From Actinocorallia herbida (GTDB taxonomy: Bacteria; Actinomycetota; Actinomycetes; Streptosporangiales; Streptosporangiaceae): DNA of 64,000 nt. The position numbers and the translations under genes are program-made. The notes beneath the pieces are model-generated. The model was not told the origin of the DNA and ran no database searches. It saw only the letters and a program-made list of their open reading frames with translations. The stretch spans positions 4,898,001-4,962,000 of the forward strand of contig NZ_RJKE01000001.1 of NCBI RefSeq assembly GCF_003751225.1, written 5' to 3'. Of the stretch, positions 33,966 through 64,000 are shown in pieces (position 1 is the stretch's first letter; each line of letters begins with the position of its first letter).

Positions 33966-34804
33966 CGACGACCACGACCAAGACCGCGCCCGGGATCGCG
34001 GGCCTGGTCGCCCCCGATCCGCCGAAGGCGCGCACCAGGCGTCCCGGCCTGTCCCTGGCGCTGCGGACCCTCGGGCCGATCGCCCTGTTCGCCCTCTGGT
34101 GGACCGGGTCCGCGCGCGGCTGGATCCGGCCCGACGTGCTCGCCTCGCCGGGCGACGTCGGCGGCGCGTTCGGTGAGCTGTGGGGCGACGGCCAGCTCCA
34201 GGACGCGCTGCGCGTCTCGCTGACCCGGGCCGGGCTCGGCCTCTCCCTCGGCATCTCGGCGGGCCTGGTGCTCGGGGTGATCAGCGGGCTGACCCGGCTC
34301 GGCGAGGAACTCGTCGACTCCTCGGTGCAGATGCTGCGGGCGGTCCCGTTCCTGTCGCTGGTGCCGCTGTTCATCGTCTGGTTCGGCATCGACGAGTCCT
34401 CGAAGATCCTGCTGATCGCGGTCGCCGTGTCGTTCCCGACCTACGTCAACGTGCACAGCGGCGTCCGCAACGTCGACCGCAAGGTCGTCGAGGCGGCCCG
34501 GACGTTCGGGCTGAGCGGGCCGCGCCTGGTCTTCGAGGTGATCCTCCCGGGCGCGCTGTCCTCGATCCTCGCGGGCGCCCGGCTGGCGCTGACGATCAGC
34601 GTGATCGCGCTGATCGCGGCCGAGGAGATCAACGCGACGGCGGGGCTCGGCCACCTGATGAACCAGGCGCTCAACTACGTGCGCACCGACATCCTCGTCG
34701 TCTGCATCATCCTGTACGCGGTGCTCGGCCTCACCGCGGACCTGCTGGTCCGCCTGGTCGAGCGGCTCATCATGCCGTGGCGGCGTCAGGTGGCGGTCCG
34801 ATGA
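33962..34804 (+). CDS. ABC transporter permease, SsuC type
   Basis: A 280-residue inner-membrane permease of the SsuC/TauC/NrtB group. After a 30-residue charged N-terminus it has about six membrane helices starting at LALRTLGPIALFALWW (residues 31-46). Family motifs are RAVPFLSLVPLFIVWFGI near 121-138 and the EAA loop EAARTFGLSGPRLVFEVILPGAL near 178-200. AAEEINATAGLGHLMNQA near 221-238 is typical of alkanesulfonate permeases. It overlaps the lipoprotein and ATPase genes by 4 bp each. Confidence 0.92.
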   Translation: MTTTTTKTAPGIAGLVAPDPPKARTRRPGLSLALRTLGPIALFALWWTGSARGWIRPDVLASPGDVGGAFGELWGDGQLQDALRVSLTRAGLGLSLGISAGLVLGVISGLTRLGEELVDSSVQMLRAVPFLSLVPLFIVWFGIDESSKILLIAVAVSFPTYVNVHSGVRNVDRKVVEAARTFGLSGPRLVFEVILPGALSSILAGARLALTISVIALIAAEEINATAGLGHLMNQALNYVRTDILVVCIILYAVLGLTADLLVRLVERLIMPWRRQVAVR

Positions 34805-35505
34805 GCCGGGCGGTGGAGGTCCGCGGCGTCCGGCGGGTGTTCGACGGACGGGCCGTCCTCGACGGCGTCGACCTCGACGTCCCGCAGGGCGAGTTCGTCG
34901 CGCTGCTCGGCGCGAGCGGCACCGGGAAGACCACCCTGCTGCGGATCCTGGCCGGGCTGGAACGCACCGACGGCGGCACCGTCCTGGTCCCGCCGGAACG
35001 TACCGTCGTGTTCCAGGAACCGCGCCTCGTGCCGTCCAAGCGGGTGCTCGGGAACGTCGTCATCGGCCAGCCGCGCGGCGCGCGCGGACGGGGACTCGAA
35101 GCGCTCGCCGAGGTCGGGCTCGAACGGCACGCCAGGTCCTGGCCCGCCACACTGTCCGGCGGCGAGGCGCAGCGGGTCGCGCTCGCCAGGGCGCTGGTGC
35201 GCGAGCCGCGCCTGCTGCTGCTCGACGAGCCGTTCGCCGCGCTCGACGCGCTGACCCGGCTCCAGATGCAGGACCTGATCGGCGCGCTCGTCCGGCGGCA
35301 CCGGCCCGCCGTCCTGCTGGTCACCCACGACGTCGACGAGGCCGTCCGGCTCGCCGACCGGGTCCTCGTCCTGCGGGACGGACGGTTGATCACCGACCGG
35401 CGGGTCGAGCCGTCCGGTGAGCACGACGTCGCGGAACTGCGCGCCGACCTGCTCGCCGACCTCGGCGTCGCCGGGGCGCCCGTACGAAAGGACGTCTCCC
35501 TGTGA
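34801..35505 (+). CDS. ABC transporter ATPase, SsuB type
   Basis: A 234-residue ATPase for the sulfonate-type importer. Walker A is GASGTGKT (residues 37-44), the Q loop VVFQEPRLVPSKRVLGNV (69-86), the signature TLSGGEAQR (117-125), Walker B LLLLDEP (138-144) and the switch His in LLVTHDVDEA. QEPRLVPS is typical of the SsuB/TauB branch. It is coupled by GTGA to the downstream luciferase-family gene. Confidence 0.93.
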   Translation: MSRAVEVRGVRRVFDGRAVLDGVDLDVPQGEFVALLGASGTGKTTLLRILAGLERTDGGTVLVPPERTVVFQEPRLVPSKRVLGNVVIGQPRGARGRGLEALAEVGLERHARSWPATLSGGEAQRVALARALVREPRLLLLDEPFAALDALTRLQMQDLIGALVRRHRPAVLLVTHDVDEAVRLADRVLVLRDGRLITDRRVEPSGEHDVAELRADLLADLGVAGAPVRKDVSL

Positions 35506-36332
35506 GCCGCGCCGAAATCCATGTGCTGGCGCCGACGCGCTTCGCGGACCGTCCTGACCTGCCCGGGTTCGTGACGGACGTCCGCCCGGCCCGGCGGGAC
35601 CCGGTCGGGCGGGCCGCCAAGGCCGCCGACCTCGCGGGACTGGCCGGGCTGGTCGTGCCGTTCGATCCCGAGGGCGTCGAGTCGCTGGTCTCGGCCGCCG
35701 GGGCACTGCGCGCGACCCGCCACGCCCGGGTCACCGCCGAGTTCCACCCCGCCGTCACCACGCCCGTCTACGCCGCGAAGCTGTCGGCCTCGCTCCAGCG
35801 GTTCTCCGCGGGACGGCTCGACTGGAAGATCGCCGTCGACCTGGACCGCGACGTCGCCCGCGCCCAGGGCGACTTCCTCGAAGGCCCCGACCGGTACCGG
35901 CGGGCCGCGGAGTTCCTGACGATCGCCAAGGGCGTCTGGCACGCCCCGTCCTTCGACTTCGAGGGCGAGTTCTACCAGGTGCTCGCCGGCGGGCTCAGAT
36001 TCCCCGCCTCTCCCGGCCCGTTCCCGCGCGTGTACCTTTCCGGCTCGTCGCCGGAGGCGCTCCGGCTGTCCGCCGAACACGCCGACGTCCACGTCCTCGA
36101 CACCGCGGACCAGGAGATCCCCGACCTTCCGGGCGTCACGCTCGGCCTGCGGCTGAGGCTCGCGGACGTCGACACGACCGCCGCCACGATCCGCGAACAG
36201 GTCGACCGGGGCGTCGGCGTCTTCCTGATCGACGCCGAGCCGCTGCCCGACGCCGCCTATCTCCTCGGCGAGTCCCTGATCCCCCGGCTCGCCCGGCTCG
36301 CCCGGCAAGACAAGGAGACCGTCCGTGGTTGA
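35502..36332 (+). CDS. Short luciferase-like (LLM) protein, probably a degenerate flavin monooxygenase subunit
   Basis: A 276-residue TIM-barrel protein homologous to the SsuD-like enzyme encoded next. Shared segments are SLQRFSAGRLDWKIAV, RYRRAAEFLTIAKGVWHAP, FDFEGEFYQVLAGGLRF and VYLSGSSPEALRLSAEHAD. It is about 90 residues shorter. Where SsuD-like enzymes read FNIISGG (flavin-phosphate region) it has WKIAVDLDRDVA, so FMN binding may be altered or lost. A non-catalytic partner, like the beta subunit of bacterial luciferase, is a reasonable idea. The start is GTG (GTGA overlap with the ATPase gene), and its 3' end overlaps the next gene by 8 bases. Confidence 0.75.
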   Translation: MSRAEIHVLAPTRFADRPDLPGFVTDVRPARRDPVGRAAKAADLAGLAGLVVPFDPEGVESLVSAAGALRATRHARVTAEFHPAVTTPVYAAKLSASLQRFSAGRLDWKIAVDLDRDVARAQGDFLEGPDRYRRAAEFLTIAKGVWHAPSFDFEGEFYQVLAGGLRFPASPGPFPRVYLSGSSPEALRLSAEHADVHVLDTADQEIPDLPGVTLGLRLRLADVDTTAATIREQVDRGVGVFLIDAEPLPDAAYLLGESLIPRLARLARQDKETVRG

Positions 36333-37428
36333 CCTCTACTGGCGCCTGCACATGGAGGGCGACCAGACCTCGCTACGCCACCGCGTCAACAGCCGGGGCG
36401 GCTTCGCCCCGGACGCGCCGGGCCGGATCGCGCCGGGCGTCCGCGACGGAGCGCCCGACGGGTTCGGCCACCTGGACTACCTCGCCGAGGTGGCCCTCGC
36501 GACCGAGGACGCCGGGCTGGTCGGCGGCCTGATGCCGTCGTTCCCGCACACCGACGACCCGTGGGCGGCCGCCGCGTCGCTGGCCGCCGAGACGTCCGCC
36601 TACCGGTTCATGATCGCGTTCCAGCCCGGGTTCCTGCACCCCGTCCAGGCCGCGCGGATGACCGCGACGCTCCAGCGCGCCACCGGCGGGCGGGTCGTCT
36701 TCAACATCATCTCCGGCGGGGGCGGGCCGCCGCAGCTCTGGTGGGGCGACAAGGTCGACCACGACGACCGCTACGACCGGACCTCGGAGTTCCTGGACGT
36801 CCTCAAGGGCGTGTGGCACGGCCCGTTCGACCACAAAGGCCGCTTCTACCAGGTCGAGAACGCCGGGCTGCCCGACTGGCTGCGCGGCCAGCCTTTCCCG
36901 GAGATCTTCTTCTCCGGCTCCTCCCCCGCCGCGATCGCCGCCGCGGGACGGCACGCCGACCACTACCTGTCCTGGCTCGAGCCGTTCGAGGCGCTGGCCG
37001 AGAAGTTCGCGCTGGTCCGCGCGCACAGCGAGACCCCGCCGAAGTTCGCCGTCCGCGTCGACGTCCTGGCCCGTGAGACCGAGGACGAGGCGTGGGAGGA
37101 GATCCGTCAGGGCTGGGCCGCCCGCCCGGCGCGCGCGGCCGAGCACGGCGACTCCGTCGGCGTCCGGCGCGGCAGATCCTTCCTCGACGGCGCGGGCGAC
37201 GGCTTCCGCGACCGCGAGGTCCAGCCCAACGTGTGGGGCGGCTTCAGCGAACTGCGCGACGGCCCCGCGTTCGGCCTCGTCGGCTCCTACGCCCAGGTCG
37301 CGGCCCGGCTCGACGAACTCCTCGCGCTCGGCGTCGACGCCCTCATCCTCGCGGGGATGCCCCATCTGGAAGAAGCCCGCCGGATCGGCGCGCACGTACT
37401 GCCCCTCCTGAAAGGACCCCTGTCATGA
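36325..37428 (+). CDS. FMNH2-dependent alkanesulfonate-type monooxygenase (SsuD-like)
   Basis: A 367-residue luciferase-family monooxygenase close in length and motifs to SsuD. Features are GLVGGLMPSFPHTDDPW near residues 52-68, FMIAFQPGFLHPVQAARM (93-110), GRVVFNIISGGGGPPQLWWGD (120-140), RYDRTSEFLDVLKGVWHGPF (146-165) and FFSGSSPAAIAAAGRHADHYLSW. SsuD enzymes use FMNH2 and O2 to release sulfite from sulfonates. A dedicated flavin reductase (SsuE) is not seen in the window. The start is a GTG with AAGGAG upstream. With the DszB-like gene, it suggests C-S bond cleavage at more than one oxidation state of sulfur. Confidence 0.88.
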   Translation: MVDLYWRLHMEGDQTSLRHRVNSRGGFAPDAPGRIAPGVRDGAPDGFGHLDYLAEVALATEDAGLVGGLMPSFPHTDDPWAAAASLAAETSAYRFMIAFQPGFLHPVQAARMTATLQRATGGRVVFNIISGGGGPPQLWWGDKVDHDDRYDRTSEFLDVLKGVWHGPFDHKGRFYQVENAGLPDWLRGQPFPEIFFSGSSPAAIAAAGRHADHYLSWLEPFEALAEKFALVRAHSETPPKFAVRVDVLARETEDEAWEEIRQGWAARPARAAEHGDSVGVRRGRSFLDGAGDGFRDREVQPNVWGGFSELRDGPAFGLVGSYAQVAARLDELLALGVDALILAGMPHLEEARRIGAHVLPLLKGPLS

Positions 37429-38309
37429 CCGTCCGCGTCGGATACTTCCCGCAGAACAACTCCCTCTGGGTGCTGCGCCACCTCGGGATCCTGGAGCGCA
37501 CCATCCCCGACGTCGAGTGGGTGAACCTGCGCGACCTTCCGTCCGGCGAACGCGTCGACCCCACGCGGGGGCTGCCGTCGGTGCACAGCGACCACCTCTT
37601 CGACGGCGGCTACGACTTCATCGGCACCGGCTCCACCCCGCCGGTCACCGCCCAGAGCCTCGGCCGCGACATCGTCTACGTCGCGATCTCCGGACCGCGG
37701 ATCGAGAACGGACGCCTCGTCGTCAAGGCCGGCTCCGGCATCCGGGACGTCGCCGACCTGAAGGGCCGCAAGGTCGCGCTCGGCCACGGCTCCTGGCAGA
37801 CGACGCTGCTGCTGCTCGCCCTGGAGAAGGCCGGGCTGGGCTGGAGGGACATCGTCCCCGTCGACGTCTACGACGACGCCGCGCAGCGGTTCCTGTCCGG
37901 CGAGGTCGACGCCTGGGTCGGCTCCTACCCCTACCTGACCGAGGTCGAGGCGCAGACCGAGGTCCGCACCCTGATCGAGACCGACGGCCTGTTCAGCCAC
38001 CGCTCCCTGTGGTTCACCCGCCGCGACTTCGCCACCGACCACCCCGCGGAACTCGCCGCGATCGTCGCCGCCCTCCAGGAGGCCGACGCCTGGACCGCCG
38101 CCCACCCGCGCGAGGCCGCCGCCTTCTTCGCCGCCTCCGACGGCCGCGACCTGGACGCCTGGGAACACGCCCTCCGCACCCGCCCCTGGGGCCTCCTCCC
38201 CATCACCCCCGACTTCGTCGCCGAACAACAACACGCCGCCGACCTCTTCCACGCCAACGCCCTGATCCCTCACCCCATCCGCGTCTCCAACGCCCTCCTC
38301 CCCACCTGA
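37425..38309 (+). CDS. SsuA-like substrate-binding-fold protein without signal peptide
   Basis: A 294-residue protein of the NMT1/SsuA fold: RVGYFPQNNSLWVLRHLGIL at the N-terminus, GYDFIGTGSTPPVTAQ near residues 62-77, DLKGRKVALGHGSWQTTLLLLAL near 112-134, and SGEVDAWVGSYPYLTEVE. It begins directly with the first beta strand, with no signal peptide or lipobox, so it should be cytoplasmic. Such proteins can be enzymes, as DszB and the THI5-type proteins show. The DszB Cys is absent (YFPQNN at that place). It is the last gene of the operon, coupled by ATGA. Confidence 0.8.
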   Translation: MTVRVGYFPQNNSLWVLRHLGILERTIPDVEWVNLRDLPSGERVDPTRGLPSVHSDHLFDGGYDFIGTGSTPPVTAQSLGRDIVYVAISGPRIENGRLVVKAGSGIRDVADLKGRKVALGHGSWQTTLLLLALEKAGLGWRDIVPVDVYDDAAQRFLSGEVDAWVGSYPYLTEVEAQTEVRTLIETDGLFSHRSLWFTRRDFATDHPAELAAIVAALQEADAWTAAHPREAAAFFAASDGRDLDAWEHALRTRPWGLLPITPDFVAEQQHAADLFHANALIPHPIRVSNALLPT

Positions 38310-38338
38310 CCCACCCCGCAGCGCACTCCGACGGCGGC

Positions 38339-38436
38339 CCCGAGCGGATCGGTCGATGGCTGCTGGAAGGCCGAGTCGGCGCGGGCGTCGTCCACCGGGA
38401 CCTCGAACCCGACAACGTCCCGATCGATCACGGAAC
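38339..38436 (+). pseudogene. Relic of a Ser/Thr protein kinase gene
   Basis: One frame reads PERIGRWLLEGRVGAGVVHR followed by DLEPDNVPIDHG. The first half matches the glycine-rich loop opening of bacterial Hanks-type kinases (IGRYRLLGRLGAG) and the second the catalytic loop (VHRDLKPxNVLID). In a real kinase these are about 100 residues apart; here they are fused with everything between deleted. There is no start, no continuation and no ribosome binding site. It is a decayed fragment lying between two convergent operons. Confidence 0.6.
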
Positions 38437-38467
38437 ACCTGCCCGGGCTCGGTCACCCCGGGCGGGT
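38437..38467. terminator. Hairpin terminator between convergent organosulfur operons
   Basis: ACCTGCCCGGG (38437-38447) pairs with CCCGGGCGGGT (38457-38467): an 11-bp stem with one G-U pair and a 9-base loop. It is 9 bases from the stop of the TPR gene and about 130 bases after the plus-strand operon. It can serve both directions. Confidence 0.65.
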
Positions 38468-38475
38468 GTCCCGGG

Positions 38476-38985
38476 TCAGGTGGTCGGGCCCGGGGAGGTG
38501 GGGCGTTTGGTGGTGTCTTGGTGGGCTATGGCTTCGGCTATCTGGTCCAGGGCGGTGCGGAGCATGGTGCCGTAGGCGTCGTTGGGGAGGGTCGGGGCGT
38601 GGGTTCGGGCGGCGGTGAGGTGGTGGGTGGCGGCGGTGAAGGAGCCTAGGCGGCGGTAGTCGTCGGCGAGGTTGAGGTGGAGGGACGGGTAGAAGGCGGC
38701 GATCTGGAGGGTGGCGTGGTGTTCCTGGACGCGGTGGTCGGTGAGGGCGTCGGCGGCGTCGAGGGCTCGGATGTCCCAGGCCAGGGCCTGGGCGGGGTCT
38801 TCGTAGAGGTCGGCCAGGTAGTGGGCGAGTGAGCAACGGTGCAGCGGGTCGCCGGTGGGGCCGATCGCGGACCAGAGGGCCAGGAGTTCGCGGCGGGCGG
38901 CGGCGGTGTCTCCGGCGTGTCCTTCGGCGACGGCTCGGCCGATGGCTTCCATGGTCGGGTCGGGGTCGGTGGAAGGGGTGGTCAT
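38476..38985 (-). CDS. Small TPR-like protein of unknown function
   Basis: A 169-residue helical protein with TPR-like pairs: AIGRAVAEGHAGDTAAARRE, then LHRCSLAHYLADLYEDPAQA and LHLNLADDYRRLGSFTAATH followed by HLTAARTHA. Proteins of this size and pattern are frequent in actinomycetes and their role is unknown. No signal peptide or membrane segment is present. The ATG at 38985 follows a GGGGAA element. It lies downstream of the second SsuC-type permease on the same strand, with a 136-base gap, so co-transcription is uncertain. Confidence 0.7.
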   Translation of the reverse strand: MTTPSTDPDPTMEAIGRAVAEGHAGDTAAARRELLALWSAIGPTGDPLHRCSLAHYLADLYEDPAQALAWDIRALDAADALTDHRVQEHHATLQIAAFYPSLHLNLADDYRRLGSFTAATHHLTAARTHAPTLPNDAYGTMLRTALDQIAEAIAHQDTTKRPTSPGPTT

Positions 38986-39121
38986 CAGAGTGTTCCCCGT
39001 CGTCTCTGCTCGGGCGGAGTGGAACCGCGCCGGGTCGGTCCGGCGCTCCGCCATCGTCGAGCTTCGACCGACTTGAAGGTCAAGCCCGTGAGCGCGCCCC
39101 TTGTCGCCGAGACGGACGCCC

Positions 39122-39856
39122 TCAGACGGGAAGGCGGCGTTCCAGGAGGCCCAGGGCCGCGTCGGTGAGCTTGCCCAGGACGGCCAGGAGGAGGATCGCC
39201 AGGAGGAGGACGTCGGTGCGGCCGGTGTTCTGGCTGTCGACGAGGAGGAAGCCGAGACCCGCGGCGGAGGCGATGAGTTCGGCTGCGACCAGGAAGAGCC
39301 ACGCCTGGGCCAGGCCGAGGCGCAGGCCGGCGAAGGCGGCGGGGGCGATGCTCGGCAGGAGGATGCGGCCCAGCAGGGTGGGGCCGTGCAGGCCGTAGGC
39401 GCGGCCCACTTCGAGCAGGTGCGCGTCGGCGTGGGCGAGGGCCGCCGAGACCGTCGTGTAGACGGGGAAGAAGGCGCCGATCGCGACCAGCGTGATCTTG
39501 GGGCCTTCACCGATGCCGAGCCACAGGACCAGCAGCGGGACCCACGCCAGCGACGGCACGGCCCGCACTGCGGCGATGGTGGGCGCGGCCAGCTCGCGCA
39601 CCGGCTTCACCATGCCGACGAGCGCGCCGAGCGCCAGTGCCGCGGCGGTGCCGAGGACGAATCCGATGAGGACCCGCCGGCCGCTGACCGCGAGATGTTC
39701 CCAGAGCTCGCCGCGGCGGATCAGCTCCGCCGCCGCGTCGACCAGGTCGGACGGCGGGGGAAGCTGCTCCCTGCCGTACAGGCCGGTCGTCACCGCCACC
39801 TGCCAGAGGACGAGCAGGACGAACGGGACGACCAGCCCCTTGACGGGCACTCTCAC
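39122..39856 (-). CDS. ABC transporter permease, SsuC type, second system
   Basis: A 244-residue permease starting with VRVPVKGLVVPFVLLVLWQ. It has about six membrane helices, RAVPSLAWVPLLVLWLGIGE (about residues 94-113), the EAA loop EVGRAYGLHGPTLLGRILLPS and AAELIASAAGLGFLLVDSQ near 194-212, all SsuC/TauC features. The start is a GTG at 39856 overlapping the stop of the binding lipoprotein gene. It is a distinct system from the permease at 33962-34804, being shorter at the N-terminus and clearly divergent. Confidence 0.9.
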   Translation of the reverse strand: MRVPVKGLVVPFVLLVLWQVAVTTGLYGREQLPPPSDLVDAAAELIRRGELWEHLAVSGRRVLIGFVLGTAAALALGALVGMVKPVRELAAPTIAAVRAVPSLAWVPLLVLWLGIGEGPKITLVAIGAFFPVYTTVSAALAHADAHLLEVGRAYGLHGPTLLGRILLPSIAPAAFAGLRLGLAQAWLFLVAAELIASAAGLGFLLVDSQNTGRTDVLLLAILLLAVLGKLTDAALGLLERRLPV

Positions 39857-40815
39857 GAAGCGTCGGCCTTCTGCGCGAACTGCGGGTCGAAGAGGGTGTC
39901 CAGTGCCGTCTTGGCCGAGGACTCGTCCTTCACCTGGCCCTCGTCGACCAGGACGGGCAGGATCCGCTCCAGCACGGTGCGCTGCGCGGCACCGGGAACC
40001 GGGCTGACGGTGAGGTCGGTGCGCTCGGTCAGCACGACCTTCGCCACGTCGGGCGTGACACCGGATTCCTTGGCGAGGAGCGCGACGGCCGCGTCGGGGT
40101 TGGCGGTGATCCACTCGCGCGCCTTCTCATAGGCGTCCACCACCTTCTGGGCGAGGTCCGGGTGGTCCTCGATGAAGTCCTCCCTGGCGTTCAGGAACCC
40201 GTAGGAGGTGAACCCGGTGTTGCGGTAGAAGAGCTTCGACCCGGAGTCCACCTCGGACTTCGCCATGATCGGGTCGAGTCCCGACCAGGCCTCGACGTCG
40301 CCGCGCTTCAAGGCGGCCTCTCCGTCGCCGTGCTGCAGATTGACGACCTCGACGTCGGTGCCGGACAGCCCCGCCTCGTGGAGCGACTGCAGGAGGAAGA
40401 AGTAGGGGTCGGTCCCCTTGGTCGCGGCGATCTTCTTGCCCTTGAGCTGGGCGACGGACGTGATCGAGGAGTCCTTCCCGGTGACCAGGGCGGTCCACTC
40501 CGGGTGGCTGTAGATCTCGATCGCCTTGATGGGCGTCCCGTTGGCGCGCGCCTGGAGCGCCGCCGCGCCCGCGGTCGATCCGACGTCGACGGTGCCCGCC
40601 CGCAGGTTCTCGTTGGCCTTGTTGCTGCCGGCCGACAGCACCCACGTGACGTCGAGGCCGTCCTTCTCCAGCCAGCCCTGCTCGCGGATGACGAGGCTCG
40701 CGGGGTTGTAGTAGGCGTAGTCGAGCTTGACCTCGGGCTTGCCGTCCTCCTCCGCGGAGGAGCAGCCCGCGGCGAGGAGGGCGACTGCGGCGAGGGCGGC
40801 GGCCGTTCTGATCAT
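39853..40815 (-). CDS. Organosulfur/nitrate-type binding lipoprotein (SsuA/TauA-like), second system
   Basis: A 320-residue receptor. The signal peptide ends in the lipobox AAGC (Cys18), followed by an acidic SSAEED linker. SsuA-type features are LDYAYYNPASLVIREQGWLE, NENLRAGTVDVGSTAGAAALQA near residues 68-89, VAQLKGKKIAATKGTDPYFFLLQSL and DVEAWSGLDPIMAKSE. It is coupled by ATGA to the ATPase gene and by GTGA to the permease gene. Ligand is unknown; a sulfonate is inferred from the adjacent island. Confidence 0.9.
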   Translation of the reverse strand: MIRTAAALAAVALLAAGCSSAEEDGKPEVKLDYAYYNPASLVIREQGWLEKDGLDVTWVLSAGSNKANENLRAGTVDVGSTAGAAALQARANGTPIKAIEIYSHPEWTALVTGKDSSITSVAQLKGKKIAATKGTDPYFFLLQSLHEAGLSGTDVEVVNLQHGDGEAALKRGDVEAWSGLDPIMAKSEVDSGSKLFYRNTGFTSYGFLNAREDFIEDHPDLAQKVVDAYEKAREWITANPDAAVALLAKESGVTPDVAKVVLTERTDLTVSPVPGAAQRTVLERILPVLVDEGQVKDESSAKTALDTLFDPQFAQKADAS

Positions 40816-41603
40816 CGGGCTGGCTCCTGTTCGTGGGGGTGATGGCTGGGGACGCCCAGCTGTTCGAGGAGTTCGGCGCTGAGCGCGGCCAGGGCGGGGC
40901 CGCCCCGGTCGCGCGGACGGGGTTCGCGGATCTCGGTCACGGAGTGGATGACCGCGCCGCCGGACTCGGTCCTGAGCAGGACGATCCGGTCGGCGAGGTG
41001 CAGGGCCTCGCCGACGTCGTGGGTGACCATGACGACGGTGCTGGCGCCGCGCACCTCGTCGAGCAGGTCCTGCATGCGCAGTCTGGTGAGGGCGTCGAGC
41101 GCCGCGAAGGGCTCGTCGAGCAGCAGGACGCCGGGGTCGCGCGCCAGCGCGCGGGCCAGCGCGACCCGCTGGGCCATGCCGCCGGACACCTGCCGGGGCC
41201 GGTGCCGGTGGAACTCGGCGAGCCCGACGAGGTCGAGCCAGCGCTCGGCGTCCGCGCGGTCGCGGCCCTTGGGCAGGCCGAGGGCGACGTTGCCGGCGAG
41301 GTCGCGCCAGGGCAGCAGCCGCGGCTCCTGGAAGACGATGGCGGTGCGCCGATCGACGCCCTCGACGCCCCTGCCGTCCAGGAGCACCTGCCCTTCGGAC
41401 GGTGTGTCAAGGCCGGAGATCAGCCGGAGCAGCGTCGACTTGCCGCAGCCGGACGGCCCGAGCAGCGCGACGATCTCGCCGGGCGCGATCTCCAGGTCGA
41501 TGGAGTCCAGCACCGCGTGCGGCCCGCCCTTGCCCACGCCGGGGAAGCTCCGCCCGACGCCGCGCAGGCTCACCGCCGCAGGAACGACAGCCACACCATC
41601 CAC
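40812..41603 (-). CDS. ABC transporter ATPase, SsuB type, second system
   Basis: A 263-residue ATPase with Walker A GPSGCGKST (about residues 48-56), Q loop IVFQEPRLLPWRDLAGNV, signature QVSGGMAQRVALARAL, Walker B VLLLDEPFAALD and switch VVMVTHDVGEAL. QEPRLLPWRD is diagnostic of the sulfonate/nitrate/taurine branch. The start is a GTG at 41603, the first gene of a three-gene minus-strand operon. The upstream patch around 41615-41640 is A+T-rich and probably holds the promoter. Confidence 0.92.
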   Translation of the reverse strand: MDGVAVVPAAVSLRGVGRSFPGVGKGGPHAVLDSIDLEIAPGEIVALLGPSGCGKSTLLRLISGLDTPSEGQVLLDGRGVEGVDRRTAIVFQEPRLLPWRDLAGNVALGLPKGRDRADAERWLDLVGLAEFHRHRPRQVSGGMAQRVALARALARDPGVLLLDEPFAALDALTRLRMQDLLDEVRGASTVVMVTHDVGEALHLADRIVLLRTESGGAVIHSVTEIREPRPRDRGGPALAALSAELLEQLGVPSHHPHEQEPAR

Positions 41604-44008: not shown

Positions 44009-44767
44009 TCACTGATGACCCGTGGCGACGGGGACCAAACCCTCGGCGAGATGAACTCTGGCGGTGCCGGTGAACGCCGGGGCGCCTACCTCCGGCCGCT
44101 CGGGCGCCGAGGCGTCCGTCCGGTCGTCGGAGGCCGCGGCCCGCCCGGGAAGGGCGCCCTTCCCGGTGGCGGCCGCGGCGGCGGACGCGGTCGTCGGCAC
44201 GCAGACCGAGGAGACGGTGACGCTCGCGGGCGCCGTGCCGGACTGCGCGAAGACCCCCTGCCAGAGGCGCCCCGATGACTGGAAGGACTGGAGGAGCAGC
44301 GGGGCGGACCCGGTGAAGGCGCCGCCCACCAGGATCGCGCCGGACGGGCACGCGCCGCCGAAGGCGATGGCCGAACCCGTCGTCGGCACGGTCACCGCCG
44401 CGCCCGGCACCTGGAAGGAGTCGCCGACGAACCCCGGTGCTCCGCGTTCGCCCTTGGGCCCCTGCGGGCCGGCGGGGCCCTGCGGACCGGTCGACCCATT
44501 GGTGCCGTTCTGCCCGGCCTGGCCGTCGGTGCCGTCCGCGCCGTCAGCGCCATCCGCTCCGTCCGTTCCGTCGGCGCCCGGGATGCCCCTGGCCCCCCGG
44601 GGCCCCTTCTTGGAGCAGCGCGTCTTCACGAGCACGACGCGGTTCTTGTGCCCGGCCTTCTTGACCTTCATCCGCTTGTAGCAACTGCCGTGCCCGCCCG
44701 AGGCAGCCGCGGGAACGGCGAGCAGCACGGTGAGTACCAGCGACATCAGACAGGCCAGCGGACGCAT
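44009..44767 (-). CDS. Secreted collagen-like triple-helix repeat protein
   Basis: A 252-residue exported protein. A signal peptide (MRPLACLMSLVLTVLLAVPAAASG) is followed by a basic region with Cys pairs (GSCYKRMKVKKAG; KTRCSKKG). Residues 51-108 or so are 19 uninterrupted Gly-X-Y triplets, from GPRGARGIPGADGTDGAD through GPQGPAGPQGPKGERGAPG, the signature of a bacterial collagen triple helix. The C-terminal globular part has a hydrophobic, Ser/Gly-rich pattern with Cys (GGACPSG; SSVCVP) and probably trimerises or adheres. Such proteins are surface or spore-coat components. The start is set by the signal peptide. Confidence 0.85.
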   Translation of the reverse strand: MRPLACLMSLVLTVLLAVPAAASGGHGSCYKRMKVKKAGHKNRVVLVKTRCSKKGPRGARGIPGADGTDGADGADGADGTDGQAGQNGTNGSTGPQGPAGPQGPKGERGAPGFVGDSFQVPGAAVTVPTTGSAIAFGGACPSGAILVGGAFTGSAPLLLQSFQSSGRLWQGVFAQSGTAPASVTVSSVCVPTTASAAAAATGKGALPGRAAASDDRTDASAPERPEVGAPAFTGTARVHLAEGLVPVATGHQ

Positions 44768-44959
44768 CGGCGAAGTTCTCCCCACTTCTCTCTCCCCCCG
44801 CTCACCGGTCACGGCGGCCGGGATCGGCGACGGGGGCCGACAGGGGTGTGCCCACCCGCCGATCCGCGGTACGCCAAGCCCGAGTCGAAGATCGGCAACG
44901 CGCGGACCCACCGCCCGGCCCGGCCCGATGGCGGCTCCGATGCAGCCCTTCTACGGGGG

Positions 44960-45665: not shown

Positions 45666-48600
45666 ATGTCTGAAGAGGATAAGTTTCGCGAATATCTTCG
45701 GCGGGCGACCACCGACCTCTATCACGCGCGCGAGCGGGTGCGGGAATTGGAGTCGGCGCGGTCCGAGGCGATCGCGATCGTGGGGATCGGGTGCAGGTAT
45801 CCCGGTGGGGTGGGGTCGGCGCGGGAGCTGTGGGAGCTGGTCGCCGACGGGCGGGACGCCGTTTCGGAGTTTCCCGCGGACCGGGGATGGGACGTCGATT
45901 CGCTGTACGATCCCGATCCCGAGAAAGCGCATAAGAGTTATACGAGGTACGGCGGTTTCCTGCACGAGGCCGCGGATTTCGACGCAGAATTCTTCGGTGT
46001 CCCGCCGCGTGAGGCGCTTTCGATGGATCCGCAGCAGCGGCTTCTGCTGGAAACGGCGTGGGAGGCGGTGGAGAACGCCGGGATCGATCCCGGGGAGCTG
46101 CGCGGAAGCCCCGTCGGGGTGTTCGCCGGGGTGATGTACCACGACTACGGCGGGCGGGTCCTGCGGGCGCCGGCCGAGGTCGAGGGGTATCTCGGGCAGG
46201 GGAGCGCGGGGAGTGTCGCGTCCGGGCGCGTCTCGCACGCGTTCGGGTTCCAGGGGCCCGCGGTGACGATCGACACCGCGTGCTCGTCGTCGCTCGTGGC
46301 GCTCCATATCGCGGCGCAGGCGCTTCGCGCGGGTGAGTGCACGATGGCGCTGGCGGGCGGGGTCACCGTGATGGCGACGCCCTCGGTGTTCCTGGAGTTC
46401 AGCCGGCAGCGCGGGCTCTCGCCGGACGGCCGCTGCAAGTCGTTCGCGGCCGCGGCCGACGGCACCGGGTGGGGCGAGGGCGTCGGCCTCCTCCTGCTCG
46501 AACGCCTCTCGGACGCCGAACGGCTCGGGCACCCGGTGCTCGCGGTCGTGAAGGGTTCCGCGATCAACCAGGACGGGACGACGACGCAGCTGTCGGCGCC
46601 GAACGGCCCCGCCCAGCAGCGGGTGATCGAACTGGCGCTCGCGAGCGCGGGGCTCGCCGCCGACGAGGTCGACGCGGTCGAGGCGCACGGGACGGGCACC
46701 ACGCTGGGCGACCCGATCGAGGCGCAGGCGCTGCTCTCGGCCTACGGCAGGCAGCGCCCGGCGGCACGGCCCCTGTACCTCGGCTCGGTCAAGTCCAACC
46801 TCGGGCACACCCAGGCCGCCGCGGGCGTCGCGGGCGTCATCAAGATGGTCCAGGCGATGCGGCACGGCACCCTGCCGAAGACGCTGCACGTGGACCGGCC
46901 CTCCCCCCACGTCGACTGGGACGGCGGCGGAGTCGCGCTGCTCACCGAGGCGCGGCAGTGGCCGGAGACCGGGCGGCCGCGCCGCGCGGCGGTGTCGTCG
47001 TTCGGGATCAGCGGGACCAACGCGCACGTGATCCTCGAACAGGCCCCCGAGCGGCAGCCGGCCGAGCCCCCCGGCGGTGCGGTCGCGCTGCCGCTGTCGG
47101 CGCGCACCCCGCAGGCGCTGCGCGACGCCGCGGCCCGGCTGGCCGCGCATGTGGCCGCGCATCCGCGGGCCACCCCCGCGCTGCTCGCGGCGCCGCTGGC
47201 GGCCCGTGCCCTGTTCGAGCGGCGCGCCGTCGTCGTGGCGGACGGCGGCGACCGGGCGACGCTCGCCGAGAGCCTGTCCGCGCTCTCCGCCGGAACGGCC
47301 GCGCCGCAGGTGGTGACCGGCATTCCGCGCGAAGGCGAAGTGGTGTTCCTGTTCAGTGGTCAGGGCAGCCAGTTCCCCGGGATGGGCCGCGACCTCCACA
47401 CCACCTACCCCGCCTTCGCGGACGCCTTCGACGCCGTCTGCGAAGCGTTCTCGCCCCACCTGGAACGACCGCTCAAGGACGTCGTCTTCGGCGACGACCC
47501 CCTCATCAACGACACCGCCTACGCCCAACCCGCCCTCTTCGCCCTCCAAGTGGCACTGTTCCGGCTGCTCGCCCACCACGGCGTACACCCCGACCACCTT
47601 CTCGGCCACTCCATCGGCGAACTCACCGCCGCGCACCTCGCCGGACTCTGGACGCTCGAGGACGCCGCACGACTCATCGCCGCACGAGGACGCCTCATGA
47701 GCACCCTGCCCACCGGAGGCGGCATGCTCACCGTCCAGGCGAACGAGACGGAACTGACCCCGTACCTGGACGGCGCCGACGTCGAGATCGCCGGCGTCAA
47801 CTCGCCGCTCGCGACCGCCGTCAGCGGTCCCCTCGATGCGCTGGACGCGCTCGCGGAACGGCTCGCCGAGCAGGGCGTCGAGGCGCGCCGCCTGGTCGTC
47901 GGCCACGCCTTCCACTCGGCCCTCATGGAACCCATGCTCACCGAATTCCACAAGACCGCCGCGAACCTCACCTACCACCCCACCCACCTGCCCGTCGTCT
48001 CCAACCTCACCGGCCGCACCGCCACCCACGAACAGCTCACCGACCCCTCCTACTGGACGGCCCAGATCCGCGGCACCGTCCGCTTCCACGACGGACTCAC
48101 CCACCTCGACACCCAACACACCCCCACCCTCTACCTCGAACTCGGACCCCGCCCCACCCTCAGCACCCTCGTCCACCAGAGCCTCGACGACGCCGCGCCG
48201 GCCCTGCCCGTCCTGGACCACCGGCGGCCGGACTGCGCCGCGTTCCTGCGCGCGCTGGCCCACGCCCACACCGGCACCCGCGCGCGCGTCGTCTGGCCGC
48301 CCGCCGCCGCCGAGCCGGTGGAGCCGCCGCCGGGCTACCCGTTCCAGCGGACCCGCTTCTGGCTCGACGCGCCCGCGGGCGACGCCGCGAGCCTGGGCCT
48401 CGTCCCGGCCGGGCACCCGCTGCTCGCGGCCGAGGCGCTCCTCCCCGACGGCCGCTGGCAGGCGACCGGAAGGATCGGCCTGGAGTCCCGCCCGTGGCTC
48501 GCCGACCACGCCGTCCACGGCACTCCGCTGCTGCCCGGCACCGCCCTGCTCGACCTGGCCCTGCACGCCGGAGAGGCGACGGGATGCCCGGCCGTGGACG

Positions 48601-51600
48601 AGCTGATCCTCCAGGCTCCGCTGGTCCTGGCGTCCCCGCGCACCCTCTATCTGGCGGTCGAACCGGCCGACGACGAGGGCCGCCGCGCCTTCGCCGTGCA
48701 CTCGAGGCCCGGAGACGACCCTGCCGGCTGGGTGACGCACGCGACCGGCACCCTCGCCCCGGAGACCACCGAGGTGCCCCTCCCGGACGCCGCGGCCGGA
48801 GACCCGGCCGACCTGTCCGGCCTGTACGAACGGCTGGAGGCGGCCGGTTACGGCTATGGTCCGGCCTTCCGCAACCTGCACGGCCTGCACCGCGCCGGCA
48901 CCGCGCTGCGCGCCGAGGTCCGGCTGGGCGCGGACACCCCCGTCCAGAACCACGGCCTTCACCCGGCCCTCCTCGACGCCGCCCTGCACGCCCTCGCCGT
49001 CGACGGACTCGGCGAGGGCGCCCTCGGCCTTCCCTTCTCCTGGCGCGGGGTCCGGCTGCACGCGACCGGTGCCGACGCGCTCCAGGTCACCCTGACGCCG
49101 CTGCGGCCGGACGCCGTCGCGCTCCACGCGGCGGACCCGAAGGGGGAGCCGGTCCTGACGGTCGAGGAACTGGTCGTCCGCCCGCTGACGGGCGAGCTCG
49201 CCGTCTCCGCGCCCGCCAGACCCGAGGTGCCCGACCTGTTCCACCTGGCGTGGATCCCTGCGCCGGAGTCCGAGCCGCGGCAGCTCGCGGGCGCGGCGTT
49301 CCTCGGGGCGCCGCCGGACGACACCGGGGCGGCCGTGCACGCGGACTTCGCGGAGCTGGCGGCGGAGCTCGGCGACCACCGGCCGCCCGCCGAGGTGGTC
49401 GCGCTGCCCTCGCTGACGGAAGCGGCCTGCGCGCACAGCGCCGACGGCTGCGGCTGCCCCGCGTCGGTGACCGCCGCGGCCGAGGCCCTGCTGCGCCTGC
49501 TCCAGGACTGGACGGCCGACGAGCGCTTCGCCGCCTCCACGCTCACCGTCGTCACCCGCCGGGCGCAGACCCTTCCGGACGACGGGGAACGACCGCCGTC
49601 GCTGACCCAGGCGGCACTGTGGGGCCTGGTCCGCAGCGCGCAGAGCGAACACCCGGACCGCTTCCGGATCGTGGACGTCGCGGCCGTCGAACCGGGCCCG
49701 CTGCTGCGGGCGGTGGCCGTGGCGGCCGCGCTGCACGAGCCGCAGATCGCGCTGCGGGGCACGACGGTCTTCCAGGCGCGGCTGGCCGACAGCCGCGAGA
49801 CGTTCCTGGTCCCGCCCGCCGACACGGGCTGGCAGCTGATGACGACGAGCCGCACGGGATCGCTCGACGACATCGTCCTGGCCCCGACGGACCTGCACGA
49901 CCGTCCGCTGGAGCCGGACGAGATCCGCATCCGCACCCGCGCGGCGGGCCTGAACTTCCGCGACGTCCTCGTCGCGCTCGGCATGGTCAAGGCGCTGGCG
50001 CCGATCGGCGGCGAGGAGGCCGGCGAGGTCACCGAGGTCGGCTCCGACGTGACGACGCTGCGCCCCGGCGACCGCGTCACGGGCCTGTTCTCCCAGGGCG
50101 GCATCGGCCCGGTCGCGACGACGGACCACCGGCTGGTGATGAAGGTCCCCGACGACTGGACGTGGGCACAGGCCGCCACCGTCCCCGTCGCCTTCCTGAC
50201 CGCCTGGCACGGACTCATCACCCTCGGCGGCCTCAAAAAAGGCCAGAAGATCCTCATCCACACCGCCACGGGCGGCGTCGGACAGGCCGCACTCCAGATC
50301 GCACGACACTTCCAAGCCGAGATCTACGCGACCGCGAGCCCCCACAAGTGGCCCGTGCTCCACGAGCGCGGACTGGACCACCACCACATCGCCAACAGCC
50401 GCACGACCAACTACGAGCACCACTTCCGCAAGACCGCGCCGCACGGCTTCGACATCGTCCTCAACAGCCTCGCGGGCGCGCACATCGACGCAAGCCTCCG
50501 CCTCCTCAAGCCCGGCGGCCACTTCATCGAGATGGGCAAGACCGACATCCGGACCCCCGAACAGCTCACCGGGCATCCCGACATCGACTACCAGCCCTTC
50601 GACCTCATCACGACCGGAACCGACCATCTCCACCGGCTGAACCAGACCGTCCACCGGCACCTCATGGCCGGCGACCTCACCCCCCTCCCCCACACGGCGC
50701 ACCCCATCACCCACGCCCGCGCCGCCATCCGCGTCCTCACCCGCGCCGACCACATCGGCAAGATCACCCTCACCCTCGACCCGCCGACCACCCACCGCGC
50801 AGCGCTCATCACCGGCGGCACCGGCACCCTCGGCGCCCTCGTCGCCGAGCACCTGGCCGTCGAGCACGGCGCCCGGCGTCTCGTGCTGGTCAGCCGACGC
50901 GGCCCGGACGCCCCCGGCGCCGACGCGCTCAGGGAGCGGCTGGAAGCGCTCGGCGCGCACGTGACCATCGCCGCCTGCGACACCGCCGACCCCGAAGCAC
51001 TCGCCGCCCTCCTCGCCACCATCCCCGAGGAGCACCCGCTCACCACGGTCGTCCACGCCGCGGGTGTCCTGCGCGACGCGCCGCTGCACGGACAGAGCCC
51101 GGCGCACCTCGCCGCGGCGTTCCGTCCGAAGGTCGACGCCGCCTGGAACCTCCACCAGCAGACGAGCCACCTCGACCTCGAAGCGTTCGTCCTGTTCTCC
51201 TCGGCGGCGGGAACCCTCGGCAACCCTGGACAGGCCAACTACGCAGCCGCCAACACCTACCTCGACGCCCTCGCCCACCACCGGCAGGCGCACGGCCTCC
51301 CTGCCACCTCCATCGCCTGGGGCCTGTGGGAGAACACCAGCGGCATGACCGCGGGCCTGACCGACACCGACCGCACCCGACTCCGCCGCTCCGGCATCCT
51401 CCCCCTCACCGACCGACACGGCCTGGCCCTCCTCGACGCGGCACTCGCCCTCGGGCGGCCGCACGCGGTCGCCACTCCGATCACCTCGGAGGCGGCCGCC
51501 GGGAACCCGTCCCCGCTCCTGCGCGGCCTCGCCCCGCAGGCCCGCCGAACGGCCGCGGCGGGCGGCCGGGCAGGGCTGCCCGGCCGGGACGGCGACCTCG

Positions 51601-52100
51601 TGGCCGAGCTGGCCGGGCTGACCGCGGACCAGCAGCGCAAGCGGCTGCTCGCCCTCGTCCAGGGGCAGGCCGCGGCCGTGCTCGGGCATCCCGCGCCGCA
51701 GGCCATCGTCCCGGACCGCCCGTTCAAGGAGCTCGGCTTCGACTCCCTCACCGCCGTCGAGCTCCGCAACCGGCTCGCCGGCGCCACCGGGTTGCGGCTC
51801 CCGCCGAGCCTGATCTTCGACCACCCCAGCCCGACCGCGCTCGCCGCGCAGCTGCTCGGCAGGCTCGCGCCGCCGGTGGCCGGCTCGGTGCCCGCGATCC
51901 TCTCCGGCCTGGAGGCCCTGGAGACCGCCCTCGCCGAGGTGCCCGACGACGACGCGGACCGGGCCGCCGTCACCGCCCGGCTCGAGGTGCTGCTGTCCCG
52001 CTGGACCGGGACCGGCACCACCGCCGCTGACGGCGATCTCTCCGCCGCGACCGACGACGACCTCTTCGACGTCATCGAGAACGAGCTCGGAATCTCCTGA
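45666..52100 (+). CDS. Type I modular polyketide synthase, one fully reducing module (KS-AT-DH-ER-KR-ACP)
   Basis: A 2144-residue PKS. An N-terminal docking helix (about 1-35) is followed by KS (catalytic C206, H341, H381) and AT (S649 in GHSIGE; HAFH at 747-750, the malonyl-CoA type). DH has H948 in HxxxGxxxxP and D1104 in HPALLD. ER has TGGVGQ near 1535 and V1441 after GM. KR has TGGTGTLG near 1716 and Y1859, with L-x-D (VLRD) of B type. ACP has S2027 in GFDSL, and an acidic C-terminal docking tail follows. One extension adds malonate and reduces it fully. The docking helix means it accepts a chain from another protein. GGGGG precedes the ATG. Confidence 0.95.
50122..50332 (+). repeat. 211-bp perfect repeat in the module 1 ER (copy 1)
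   Basis: This tract of the ER coding region is identical, base for base by eye, to 56573-56783 in module 2. A second tract, 50514-50609, is identical to 56965-57060. Flanking ER sequence differs by silent and coding changes, so the identity is not simply functional constraint; recent gene conversion or module duplication is the likely cause. Confidence 0.9.
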
Positions 52101-52122
52101 CCCCTTCACCGGAGGAATGCAG

Positions 52123-64000
<11,878 letters not shown>

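What the first reader, a model, noticed from the sequence alone, without database searches (positions are those of the whole stretch)
45666..64000. Predicted product segment and missing loading module
Domain reading gives malonyl fully reduced, then methylmalonyl fully reduced with predicted 2R methyl (Val after GM in the ER), then methylmalonyl with KR and DH only. Protein 1 starts with a docking helix, so a loading or earlier module must be encoded elsewhere even though upstream genes here are unrelated. The cluster edge, no pathway regulator, and a gene order that may not follow chain order make the product hard to guess.
Basis: partly seen in the sequence, partly recalled or inferred. Interest (0 to 1): 0.5.

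Follow-up and report, generated by a model that had tools for sequence, protein, structure and literature searches.

The report
Assembly line for decalin tetramate antibiotic
The genes at the end of this window are the middle and end of a bacterial assembly line whose start lies just past the window edge, and together they most likely build a small two-ring molecule attached to a glycine-derived tetramic acid, a class that includes known antibiotics; the exact product was not met in our searches of the open literature.

Summary
The missing loading module is found: 7 kb past the edge lies PKS3 (6,424 aa) with a decarboxylating KSQ loading module, three extension modules, no N-terminal docking domain and a C-terminal tail. 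Docking ends give the order PKS3 - PKS1 - PKS2, so gene order does not follow chain order. No thioesterase was found. Instead there are a degenerate last KR, a glycine-coding C-A-PCP NRPS and a Dieckmann cyclase like NcmC, hence a 3-acyl tetramic acid. Programming predicts diene / four-carbon tether / alpha-methyl-enoyl, the layout for an intramolecular Diels-Alder reaction to a decalin. A flavoprotein of the cluster groups with the known flavin [4+2] cyclases (98/96), not with the hydroxylases sampled. "No pathway regulator" is wrong: SARP and LAL-type LuxR genes lie past the edge. The cluster (45.7-102.8 kb) is whole in one related genome and nearly so in Streptomyces xylophagus. Verdict: new member of a known kind, predicted core C21H31NO3; decalin formation and the flavoprotein's role are inferred.

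The parts
45666..52100 (+). PKS1: N-dock, KS-AT(malonyl)-DH-ER-KR-ACP, C-terminal tail; extension module 4 of the predicted chain
45672..45755 (+). N-terminal docking domain of PKS1 (PF08990)
   Evidence: residues 7-34
51852..52097 (+). C-terminal tail of PKS1 after the ACP, read as docking domain
   Evidence: docking role inferred
52117..64000 (+). PKS2, part inside the window; runs on to 67899 in continued numbering. N-dock; module 5 mmal DH-ER-KR, module 6 mmal DH-KR, module 7 malonyl with degenerate KR; short C-terminus, no TE
52126..52212 (+). N-terminal docking domain of PKS2 (PF08990)
   Evidence: residues 4-32
52222..58302 (+). PKS2 module 5 (approximate limits): KS-AT(mmal)-DH-ER-KR-ACP
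58369..63426 (+). PKS2 module 6 (approximate limits): KS-AT(mmal)-DH-KR-ACP; gives the predicted dienophile
63493..64000 (+). Start of PKS2 module 7 (KS), cut by the window edge. The rest of the cluster lies past the edge and is listed with continued numbering in the Full report section: FAD enzyme, methyltransferase, SnoaL, PKS3, SARP, NRPS, Dieckmann cyclase, 100-aa protein, SDR, TetR, MFS, LLM, LAL

Best explanation
The window ends inside a modular PKS-NRPS cluster of 15 genes. Chain growth starts on PKS3 (KSQ decarboxylates malonyl to an acetyl starter; modules 1-3), passes by docking domains to PKS1 (module 4) and PKS2 (modules 5-7). The last module cannot reduce, so a beta-keto chain is handed to the one-module NRPS, which adds glycine, and the Dieckmann cyclase releases it as a 3-acyl tetramic acid. 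Predicted acyl chain: CH3CH2CH(CH3)-CH=CH-CH=CH-(CH2)3-CH(CH3)-CH=C(CH3)-CO-. The diene (modules 2-3) and the alpha-methyl-enoyl dienophile (module 6) are joined by four saturated carbons (modules 4-5), so an intramolecular [4+2] reaction gives a decalin bearing a sec-butyl group, probably catalysed by the flavoprotein. Core C21H31NO3, [M+H]+ 346.2377; with N-methylation 360.2533. Shown: genes, domains, motifs, conserved programming, homologies, tree. Inferred: chain order, substrate choice, decalin, the enzyme for each tailoring step.
For: PKS3 carries the only KSQ of the three proteins and no PF08990 docking domain at E 0.001; PKS1 and PKS2 both have one. From the last ACP motif to the end PKS1 has 122 aa, PKS3 119, PKS2 54, so PKS2 alone lacks a C-terminal docking tail; only the order PKS3-PKS1-PKS2 uses every end. 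Last KR: the catalytic Tyr and Asn stretch (NYAAAN in the active KR) is gone and the Ser loop is rebuilt in 4 of 4 genomes aligned. A domain code DILQLGVI equals the one reported for the glycine NRPS of nocamycin (PMC5466765, passages). Dieckmann cyclase: NcmC 6e6t E 1.1e-42 over query residues 3-267, nucleophile Cys aligned. By motif, AT class and KR/DH/ER content agree in G265 for 7 of 7 extension modules; the three modules of S. xylophagus PKS3 agree too. Flavoprotein: groups with ChlE3, PyrE3, TedJ and Tmn9, support 98/96, apart from FlsO1, PgaE, 4k2x and 4k5r; AU tests against three placings with the oxygenases p 0.049, 0.020, 0.020. The gene set is shared: 15 of 15 genes in G265, 14 of 15 in S. 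xylophagus (its contig ends in PKS2), 10 of 15 on two cut contigs of G237; of 17 flanking ORFs only two ABC ATPases had matches, at 30-37%. Formula.
Against: No chemistry was tested. The flavoprotein lacks two of the five residues that PMC13273814 (passages) calls universally conserved in decalin-forming cyclases: position 32 is Asp (Glu in two of the four orthologs) and 97 is Gln in all four; but in my alignment TedJ, a proven Diels-Alderase, also has Asp and Gln there. By plain score FlsO1, grouped by me with the hydroxylases, is its best PDB hit (300.5 bits; ChlE3 295.8, PyrE3 278.4); Pfam calls its C-terminus aromatic-ring hydroxylase. One AU test is borderline (0.0487), the branch is long (0.84) and only 22 sequences were used. 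The module 6 DH has an altered first motif, and in G265 its second motif was not matched; the module 3 DH reads LLPA instead of LLPG (also in relatives), and its second motif was not matched in S. xylophagus: either double bond could be missing. In S. xylophagus the loading AT gave no HAFH-type match. In the last KR the aligner still finds a Ser near the old Ser place in 3 of 4 sequences. Docking-pair compatibility was read from presence and absence, not from a residue code.
Confidence: 0.72

Rival explanations
1. The product is a linear or otherwise cyclised 3-acyl glycine tetramate. No Diels-Alder reaction takes place and the flavoprotein is an ordinary monooxygenase acting on the chain or the ring.
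For: Best PDB hit by score is FlsO1; the NCBIfam hits shown (25 of 64) are monooxygenases and other FAD enzymes, all below cut-off; Pfam FAD_binding_3 and Rng_hyd_C, over cut-off; Gln at position 97 as in the oxygenases, Asp at 32; DH motifs of modules 3 and 6 are not textbook.
Against: Tree places it with the [4+2] cyclases at 98/96 and tests against the oxygenase placings give p 0.049, 0.020, 0.020. Diene, four-carbon tether and enoyl are programmed alike in G265.
Confidence: 0.17
2. A decalin is formed, but not by the flavoprotein: the SnoaL/NTF2 protein, the 100-aa all-beta protein or the methyltransferase-like protein does it, or it is spontaneous, and the flavoprotein oxidises.
For: These genes are conserved in G265 and S. 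xylophagus; the small protein models as a barrel with weak matches to fatty-acid-binding and avidin-like barrels. NTF2-fold and methyltransferase-fold [4+2] cyclases exist (IdmH, SpnF; recalled, no call).
Against: No chain named IdmH, AbyU or PyrI4 appears for the NTF2 or small protein in the PDB sequence searches at E up to 1 or 10; the small-protein family is common outside such clusters (37 of 341 genomes); the barrel model is of middling confidence (pLDDT 72.8); the methyltransferase matches N-methyltransferases.
Confidence: 0.2
3. PKS1 takes its chain from another PKS in the genome and PKS3 belongs to a different product.
For: The genome has 10 further modular-type KS domains in three other loci (2.417-2.440, 4.728-4.742, 9.417 Mb).
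Against: PKS1, PKS2 and PKS3 stay together in the same order in G265, and PKS2 with PKS3 in S. xylophagus; docking ends leave one consistent order.
Confidence: 0.03
4. The NRPS, Dieckmann cyclase and SARP on the opposite strand make a separate product and PKS2 is released otherwise.
For: They are on the strand opposite to the PKS genes, and G019 has the same trio in what may be another setting.
Against: No thioesterase was found in PKS2 and its last KR is degenerate, as a tetramate needs; the trio sits next to PKS3 in S. xylophagus and G265 as well.
Confidence: 0.04

Closest known systems
Nocamycin / tirandamycin tetramate clusters (NcmA-NcmB-NcmC, Trd)
   Same: Modular type I PKS, one-module glycine NRPS with code DILQLGVI (nocamycin), NcmC/TrdC-type Dieckmann cyclase
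   Different: Nocamycin carries a bicyclic ketal unit and its cluster includes P450 genes (passages); here no P450 was recognised among the 15 genes and the PKS programming fits a decalin
Lydicamycin cluster (Streptomyces sp. TP-A0598)
   Same: Bacterial modular PKS + glycine NRPS giving a tetramic acid with an octalin (PMC4572681, passages)
   Different: 17 PKS modules, guanidinobutyryl starter and a P450 there; 7 extension modules and acetyl starter here; no gene was assigned to octalin formation in the passages seen
PyrE3 / ChlE3 / TedJ flavin-dependent [4+2] cyclases
   Same: Sequence family, grouping in the tree, His at position 74
   Different: 39-42% identity; Asp/Gln at positions 32/97 (TedJ too); no second, spiro-forming cyclase (PyrI4 type) recognised in this cluster
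BE-54476-A/B (actinomycete decalin glycine tetramates)
   Same: Decalin attached to an unsubstituted (glycine-type) tetramic acid (PMC10771470, passages)
   Different: BE-54476-A is C20H29NO5 with hydroxyl, methoxyl, ethyl and cis-decalin; predicted core here is C21H31NO3 with sec-butyl; no gene cluster for it was seen in the passages
Equisetin-type fungal 3-decalinoyltetramic acids
   Same: Same bond layout: diene, four-carbon tether, alpha-methyl-enoyl tetramate (recalled)
   Different: Fungal PKS-NRPS with a lipocalin-like Diels-Alderase (PMC9701702, start of abstract); unrelated enzymes

Membership tests
Bacterial modular PKS-NRPS acyl-tetramate (NcmC/TrdC type) | Modular PKS whose last module leaves a beta-keto group | tested here: met
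   Module 7 has no DH/ER and a KR without the catalytic Tyr/Asn stretch in 4 of 4 genomes aligned; inactivity itself is inferred
Bacterial modular PKS-NRPS acyl-tetramate (NcmC/TrdC type) | One NRPS module C-A-PCP loading an amino acid | tested here: met
   Pfam C, A, PCP; code DILQLGVI as in nocamycin; code read by eye against recalled GrsA positions
Bacterial modular PKS-NRPS acyl-tetramate (NcmC/TrdC type) | Discrete Dieckmann cyclase with Cys nucleophile | tested here: met
   NcmC E 1.1e-42, Cys aligned; chain 6e6u has Ser at the same place
Bacterial modular PKS-NRPS acyl-tetramate (NcmC/TrdC type) | Tetramic acid product | not testable with these tools
   needs LC-MS/NMR
3-Decalinoyltetramic acid pathway | Programmed diene, four-carbon saturated tether, activated dienophile | tested here: met
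   Modules 2-3 DH-KR, 4-5 DH-ER-KR, 6 DH-KR mmal, same domain content in G265; activity of each domain inferred, two DH motifs unusual
Flavin-dependent decalin [4+2] cyclase (PyrE3 family) | Groups with characterised cyclases rather than hydroxylases | tested here: met
   98/96; AU p 0.049, 0.020, 0.020; 22 sequences, long branch, one test borderline
Flavin-dependent decalin [4+2] cyclase (PyrE3 family) | Glu32 and His97 (ChlE3 numbering), reported as universally conserved | tested here: not met
   Asp32 in 2 of 4 orthologs and Gln97 in 4 of 4; TedJ (8r1r) also has Asp/Gln in my alignment
Flavin-dependent decalin [4+2] cyclase (PyrE3 family) | His74 contacting the ketone beside the tetramate or tetronate | tested here: met
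   His in 4 of 4 orthologs; but also in FlsO1 and PgaE, so weak
Flavin-dependent decalin [4+2] cyclase (PyrE3 family) | Catalysis of the [4+2] reaction without redox change | not testable with these tools
   needs purified enzyme and substrate

The most novel reading that the evidence does not exclude
The cluster makes a so far undescribed sec-butyl decalin glycine tetramate, using a separate lineage of flavin-dependent Diels-Alderase that is sister to the characterised ones sampled and works on a tetramate with only one [4+2] step; the NTF2 and small barrel proteins assist or set the stereochemistry.
Probability: 0.45. Interest if true: 0.6.

Novelty: new member of a known kind. Interest (0 to 1): 0.45.

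Why it matters
It turns an apparently product-less cluster edge into a concrete, testable structure and mass. Decalin tetramates include antibacterial compounds and are said to come mainly from filamentous fungi (PMC10470909, start of abstract); for the bacterial lydicamycin no gene was assigned to the octalin in the passages read. A compact 15-gene cluster, whole in two genomes (this one and G265), with a flavoprotein that groups with, but outside, the known Diels-Alderases would let one ask what turns a hydroxylase fold into a Diels-Alderase.

Tried and rejected
Missing loading module in another locus: not needed, PKS3 supplies it. Thioesterase release and macrolide: no thioesterase family at E 0.001 in the pieces of PKS1, PKS2 and PKS3 scanned. 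The 1229-aa ORF at 91198-94887 first looked longer than the NRPS; its first 205 residues are a wrong-frame read over the Dieckmann cyclase gene; likewise the first part of the 392-aa SDR ORF covers the 100-aa gene. Residue signature as the test of the flavoprotein: dropped as inconclusive because TedJ breaks it too. SnoaL as an IdmH relative: no chain so named in the PDB sequence searches, single sequence or profile. Small protein: no PDB sequence match of note (best E 0.19), no Pfam or NCBIfam match; AbyU/PyrI4 did not appear among the 50 rows shown of each structure comparison, which does not exclude kinship. Known product: nine paper searches showed no paper that I recognised as describing this cluster or this C21H31NO3 compound; only open-licence papers are held, I saw listings and, of eight papers, passages, and no whole text. 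Streptomyces xylophagus: 4 papers name it; by title and start of abstract none concerns a tetramate.

Full report
Check of the observation. The window is part of a 9.8-Mb single-contig genome, G000:C1 4898001-4962000. Pfam gives KS, AT, DH, ER, KR and ACP in PKS1, and in PKS2 one fully reducing module, one DH-KR module and a third module. PF08990 docking domains stand at the start of both proteins.

What lies beyond the edge. A KS search of the whole genome found 33 matches; I count 18 of them as modular PKS ketosynthases by score and frame length, eight in this locus. I fetched 70 kb past the edge and read the genes. PKS2 ends at 67899 with a third module. PKS3, 71036-90310, has only two residues before the EPIAIVG start of its first KS, whose active site reads VDTGQSSS (KSQ), followed by a malonyl-type AT and an ACP, then three modules. 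This is the missing loading module.

Genes past the edge, in continued window numbering (window base 64000 = C1 4962000): PKS2 to 67899 +; FAD enzyme 67916-69388 +, 490 aa; SAM methyltransferase 69497-70351 +; SnoaL/NTF2 protein 70374-70853 -; PKS3 71036-90310 +; SARP 90434-91201 -; NRPS C-A-PCP 91198-94272 -, 1024 aa; Dieckmann cyclase 94269-95087 -, 272 aa; 100-aa protein 95305-95607 +; SDR 95607-96401 +; TetR 96442-97044 +; MFS 97080-98636 +; LLM monooxygenase 98836-99897 +; LAL-type LuxR 100061-102808 +.

Chain order. PKS3 has no N-terminal docking domain at E 0.001, PKS1 and PKS2 have one. PKS1 and PKS3 have 122 and 119 residues from the last ACP motif to the end; PKS2 has 54. Only PKS3 - PKS1 - PKS2 uses all ends. 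This is inference from presence and absence; no residue code for docking pairs was tested.

Release. No TE was found in PKS2. Its last KR has lost the stretch that holds the catalytic Tyr and Asn (NYAAAN in the active KR of module 6) in this genome, S. xylophagus, G265 and G237 (4 of 4 aligned); the Ser loop is rebuilt (FSS to APLT) though the aligner places a Ser nearby in 3 of 4. Opposite in strand lie a SARP, an NRPS C-A-PCP and a 272-aa protein whose only good PDB match is the Dieckmann cyclase NcmC (E 1.1e-42, Cys aligned) and which has no Pfam match. The A-domain code, read by eye against recalled reference positions, is DILQLGVI(WK); the nocamycin paper reports DILQLGVI for its glycine NRPS (PMC5466765, passages). 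So the product should be a 3-acyl tetramic acid from glycine.

Product. Starter acetyl; modules: 1 mmal fully reduced, 2 and 3 malonyl DH-KR, 4 malonyl fully reduced, 5 mmal fully reduced (2R by the recalled ER rule), 6 mmal DH-KR, 7 malonyl unreduced. Arithmetic gives C21H31NO3, [M+H]+ 346.2377; N-methyl 360.2533. Diene and dienophile are separated by four saturated carbons, the layout that closes to a decalin. By motif search the same AT classes and reductive domains are found in 7 of 7 extension modules of G265 and in the three modules of S. xylophagus PKS3. Misses of that search: the loading AT of S. xylophagus gave no HAFH-type match; the second DH motif was not matched in G265 module 6 and S. 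xylophagus module 3, and the ER stereo motif not in G265 module 5. Non-standard first DH motifs (module 6 HAVHATPLLP; module 3 LLPA) are a reservation; G265 shares both and S. xylophagus the second.

The flavoprotein. Pfam FAD_binding_3 and Rng_hyd_C. PDB matches are FlsO1 300.5 bits, ChlE3 295.8, Tmn9 (6ui5) 292.9, PgaE 290.9, PyrE3 278.4, so scores do not decide. A 22-row tree puts the four cluster orthologs with ChlE3, PyrE3, TedJ (PDB 8R1R by PMC12380092, passages), Tmn9 and one G265 paralog, support 98/96, apart from FlsO1, PgaE, 4k2x and 4k5r. Forcing it with oxygenases gives AU p 0.0487 (PgaE/FlsO1), 0.0204 (4k2x) and 0.0199 (4k5r). Against: two of five residues called universal in PMC13273814 (passages) differ (Asp or Glu at 32, Gln at 97), though TedJ has Asp and Gln as well. 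I therefore call it a candidate that probably works like these cyclases, not a filed member of the PyrE3/ChlE3 group.

Other genes. Methyltransferase: NCBIfam daptide_MTase 188.3 bits, cut-off 175, best PDB hit PCZA361.24 (that this is the glycopeptide N-methyltransferase MtfA is recalled); N-methylation here is a guess. SnoaL/NTF2 protein: nearest PDB is PA3332. 100-aa protein: model mean pLDDT 72.8, all-beta; weak barrel matches, best Foldseek E 5.9e-4 to a designed barrel, VIA Z 12.2 to Cap15; a fold, not a function. SDR, TetR, MFS exporter, MupA/Atu3671 LLM monooxygenase and LAL-type LuxR follow.

Distribution and borders. A scan of named genomes with the Dieckmann cyclase returned one locus, Streptomyces xylophagus NRRL B-12029, 85%. 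In the window's family 26 of 341 genomes, this one counted, have a match; the next two are at 76% and 74%, then 52%. tblastn of the 15 cluster proteins: 15 of 15 in G265; 14 of 15 in S. xylophagus (its contig ends inside PKS2; hits of PKS1 there are to PKS3 and were not counted); 10 of 15 in G237, on one stretch and one 3.5-kb contig, both cut; 6 of 15 in the 19.9 kb of G019 that I fetched. Of 17 flanking ORFs (10 upstream, 7 downstream) two, both ABC ATPases, had matches at E 1e-5, at 30-37%. Upstream this test rests on G265 alone (23 kb); downstream on G265 (49 kb) and shorter stretches of the others. The cluster therefore runs from PKS1 to the LAL gene, 45.7 to 102.8 kb.

Literature. Closest bacterial decalin or octalin glycine tetramates seen are lydicamycin (PMC4572681, passages) and BE-54476-A/B (PMC10771470, passages); neither has this module set or formula in what I saw. 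No paper on this cluster was recognised in nine searches of the open library (listed under tried and rejected).

Verdict. Observation confirmed; interpretation partly supported. A new member of the bacterial PKS-NRPS acyl-tetramate kind, with a plausible decalin and a flavoprotein worth testing.

Noticed in passing
window 46719-46793 (-) and 53173-53247 (-): Two Rfam hits to ASpks (RF01782, 59.3 and 60.3 bits, gathering 52), antisense to the C-terminal half of the KS domains of PKS1 and PKS2; probably the family model recognises conserved KS coding sequence.
   Followed up: no
window 44009-44911 (-): ORF with a collagen-like Gly-X-Y stretch after a possible signal peptide, just upstream of PKS1.
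   Followed up: partly
window 32985-41603: Two NMT1/THI5-type substrate-binding proteins, an ABC ATPase and a luciferase-like monooxygenase, looking like a sulfonate or related uptake and oxidation region.
   Followed up: no
G000:C1 2416983-2440153, 4728159-4742363, 9416953-9417702: Three other modular PKS loci in the genome with 6, 3 and 1 KS domains.
   Followed up: no
L057 (G265:C5:180607-182001): A flavoprotein of another locus falls inside the known [4+2] cyclase group in the tree; that genome may have a second such pathway.
   Followed up: no
L074 (G019:C8:187000-206900): A more distant cluster with Dieckmann cyclase, NRPS, SARP, LLM monooxygenase, LAL regulator and methyltransferase (39-72% identity); no PKS match in the stretch fetched.
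   Followed up: partly
region 95305-95607 (past the window edge), loci L077-L086: The 100-aa all-beta protein belongs to a family found in 37 of 341 genomes of the bacterial family, outside the cluster mostly at 29-44% identity, with no Pfam, NCBIfam or good PDB sequence match; its role is unknown.
   Followed up: partly
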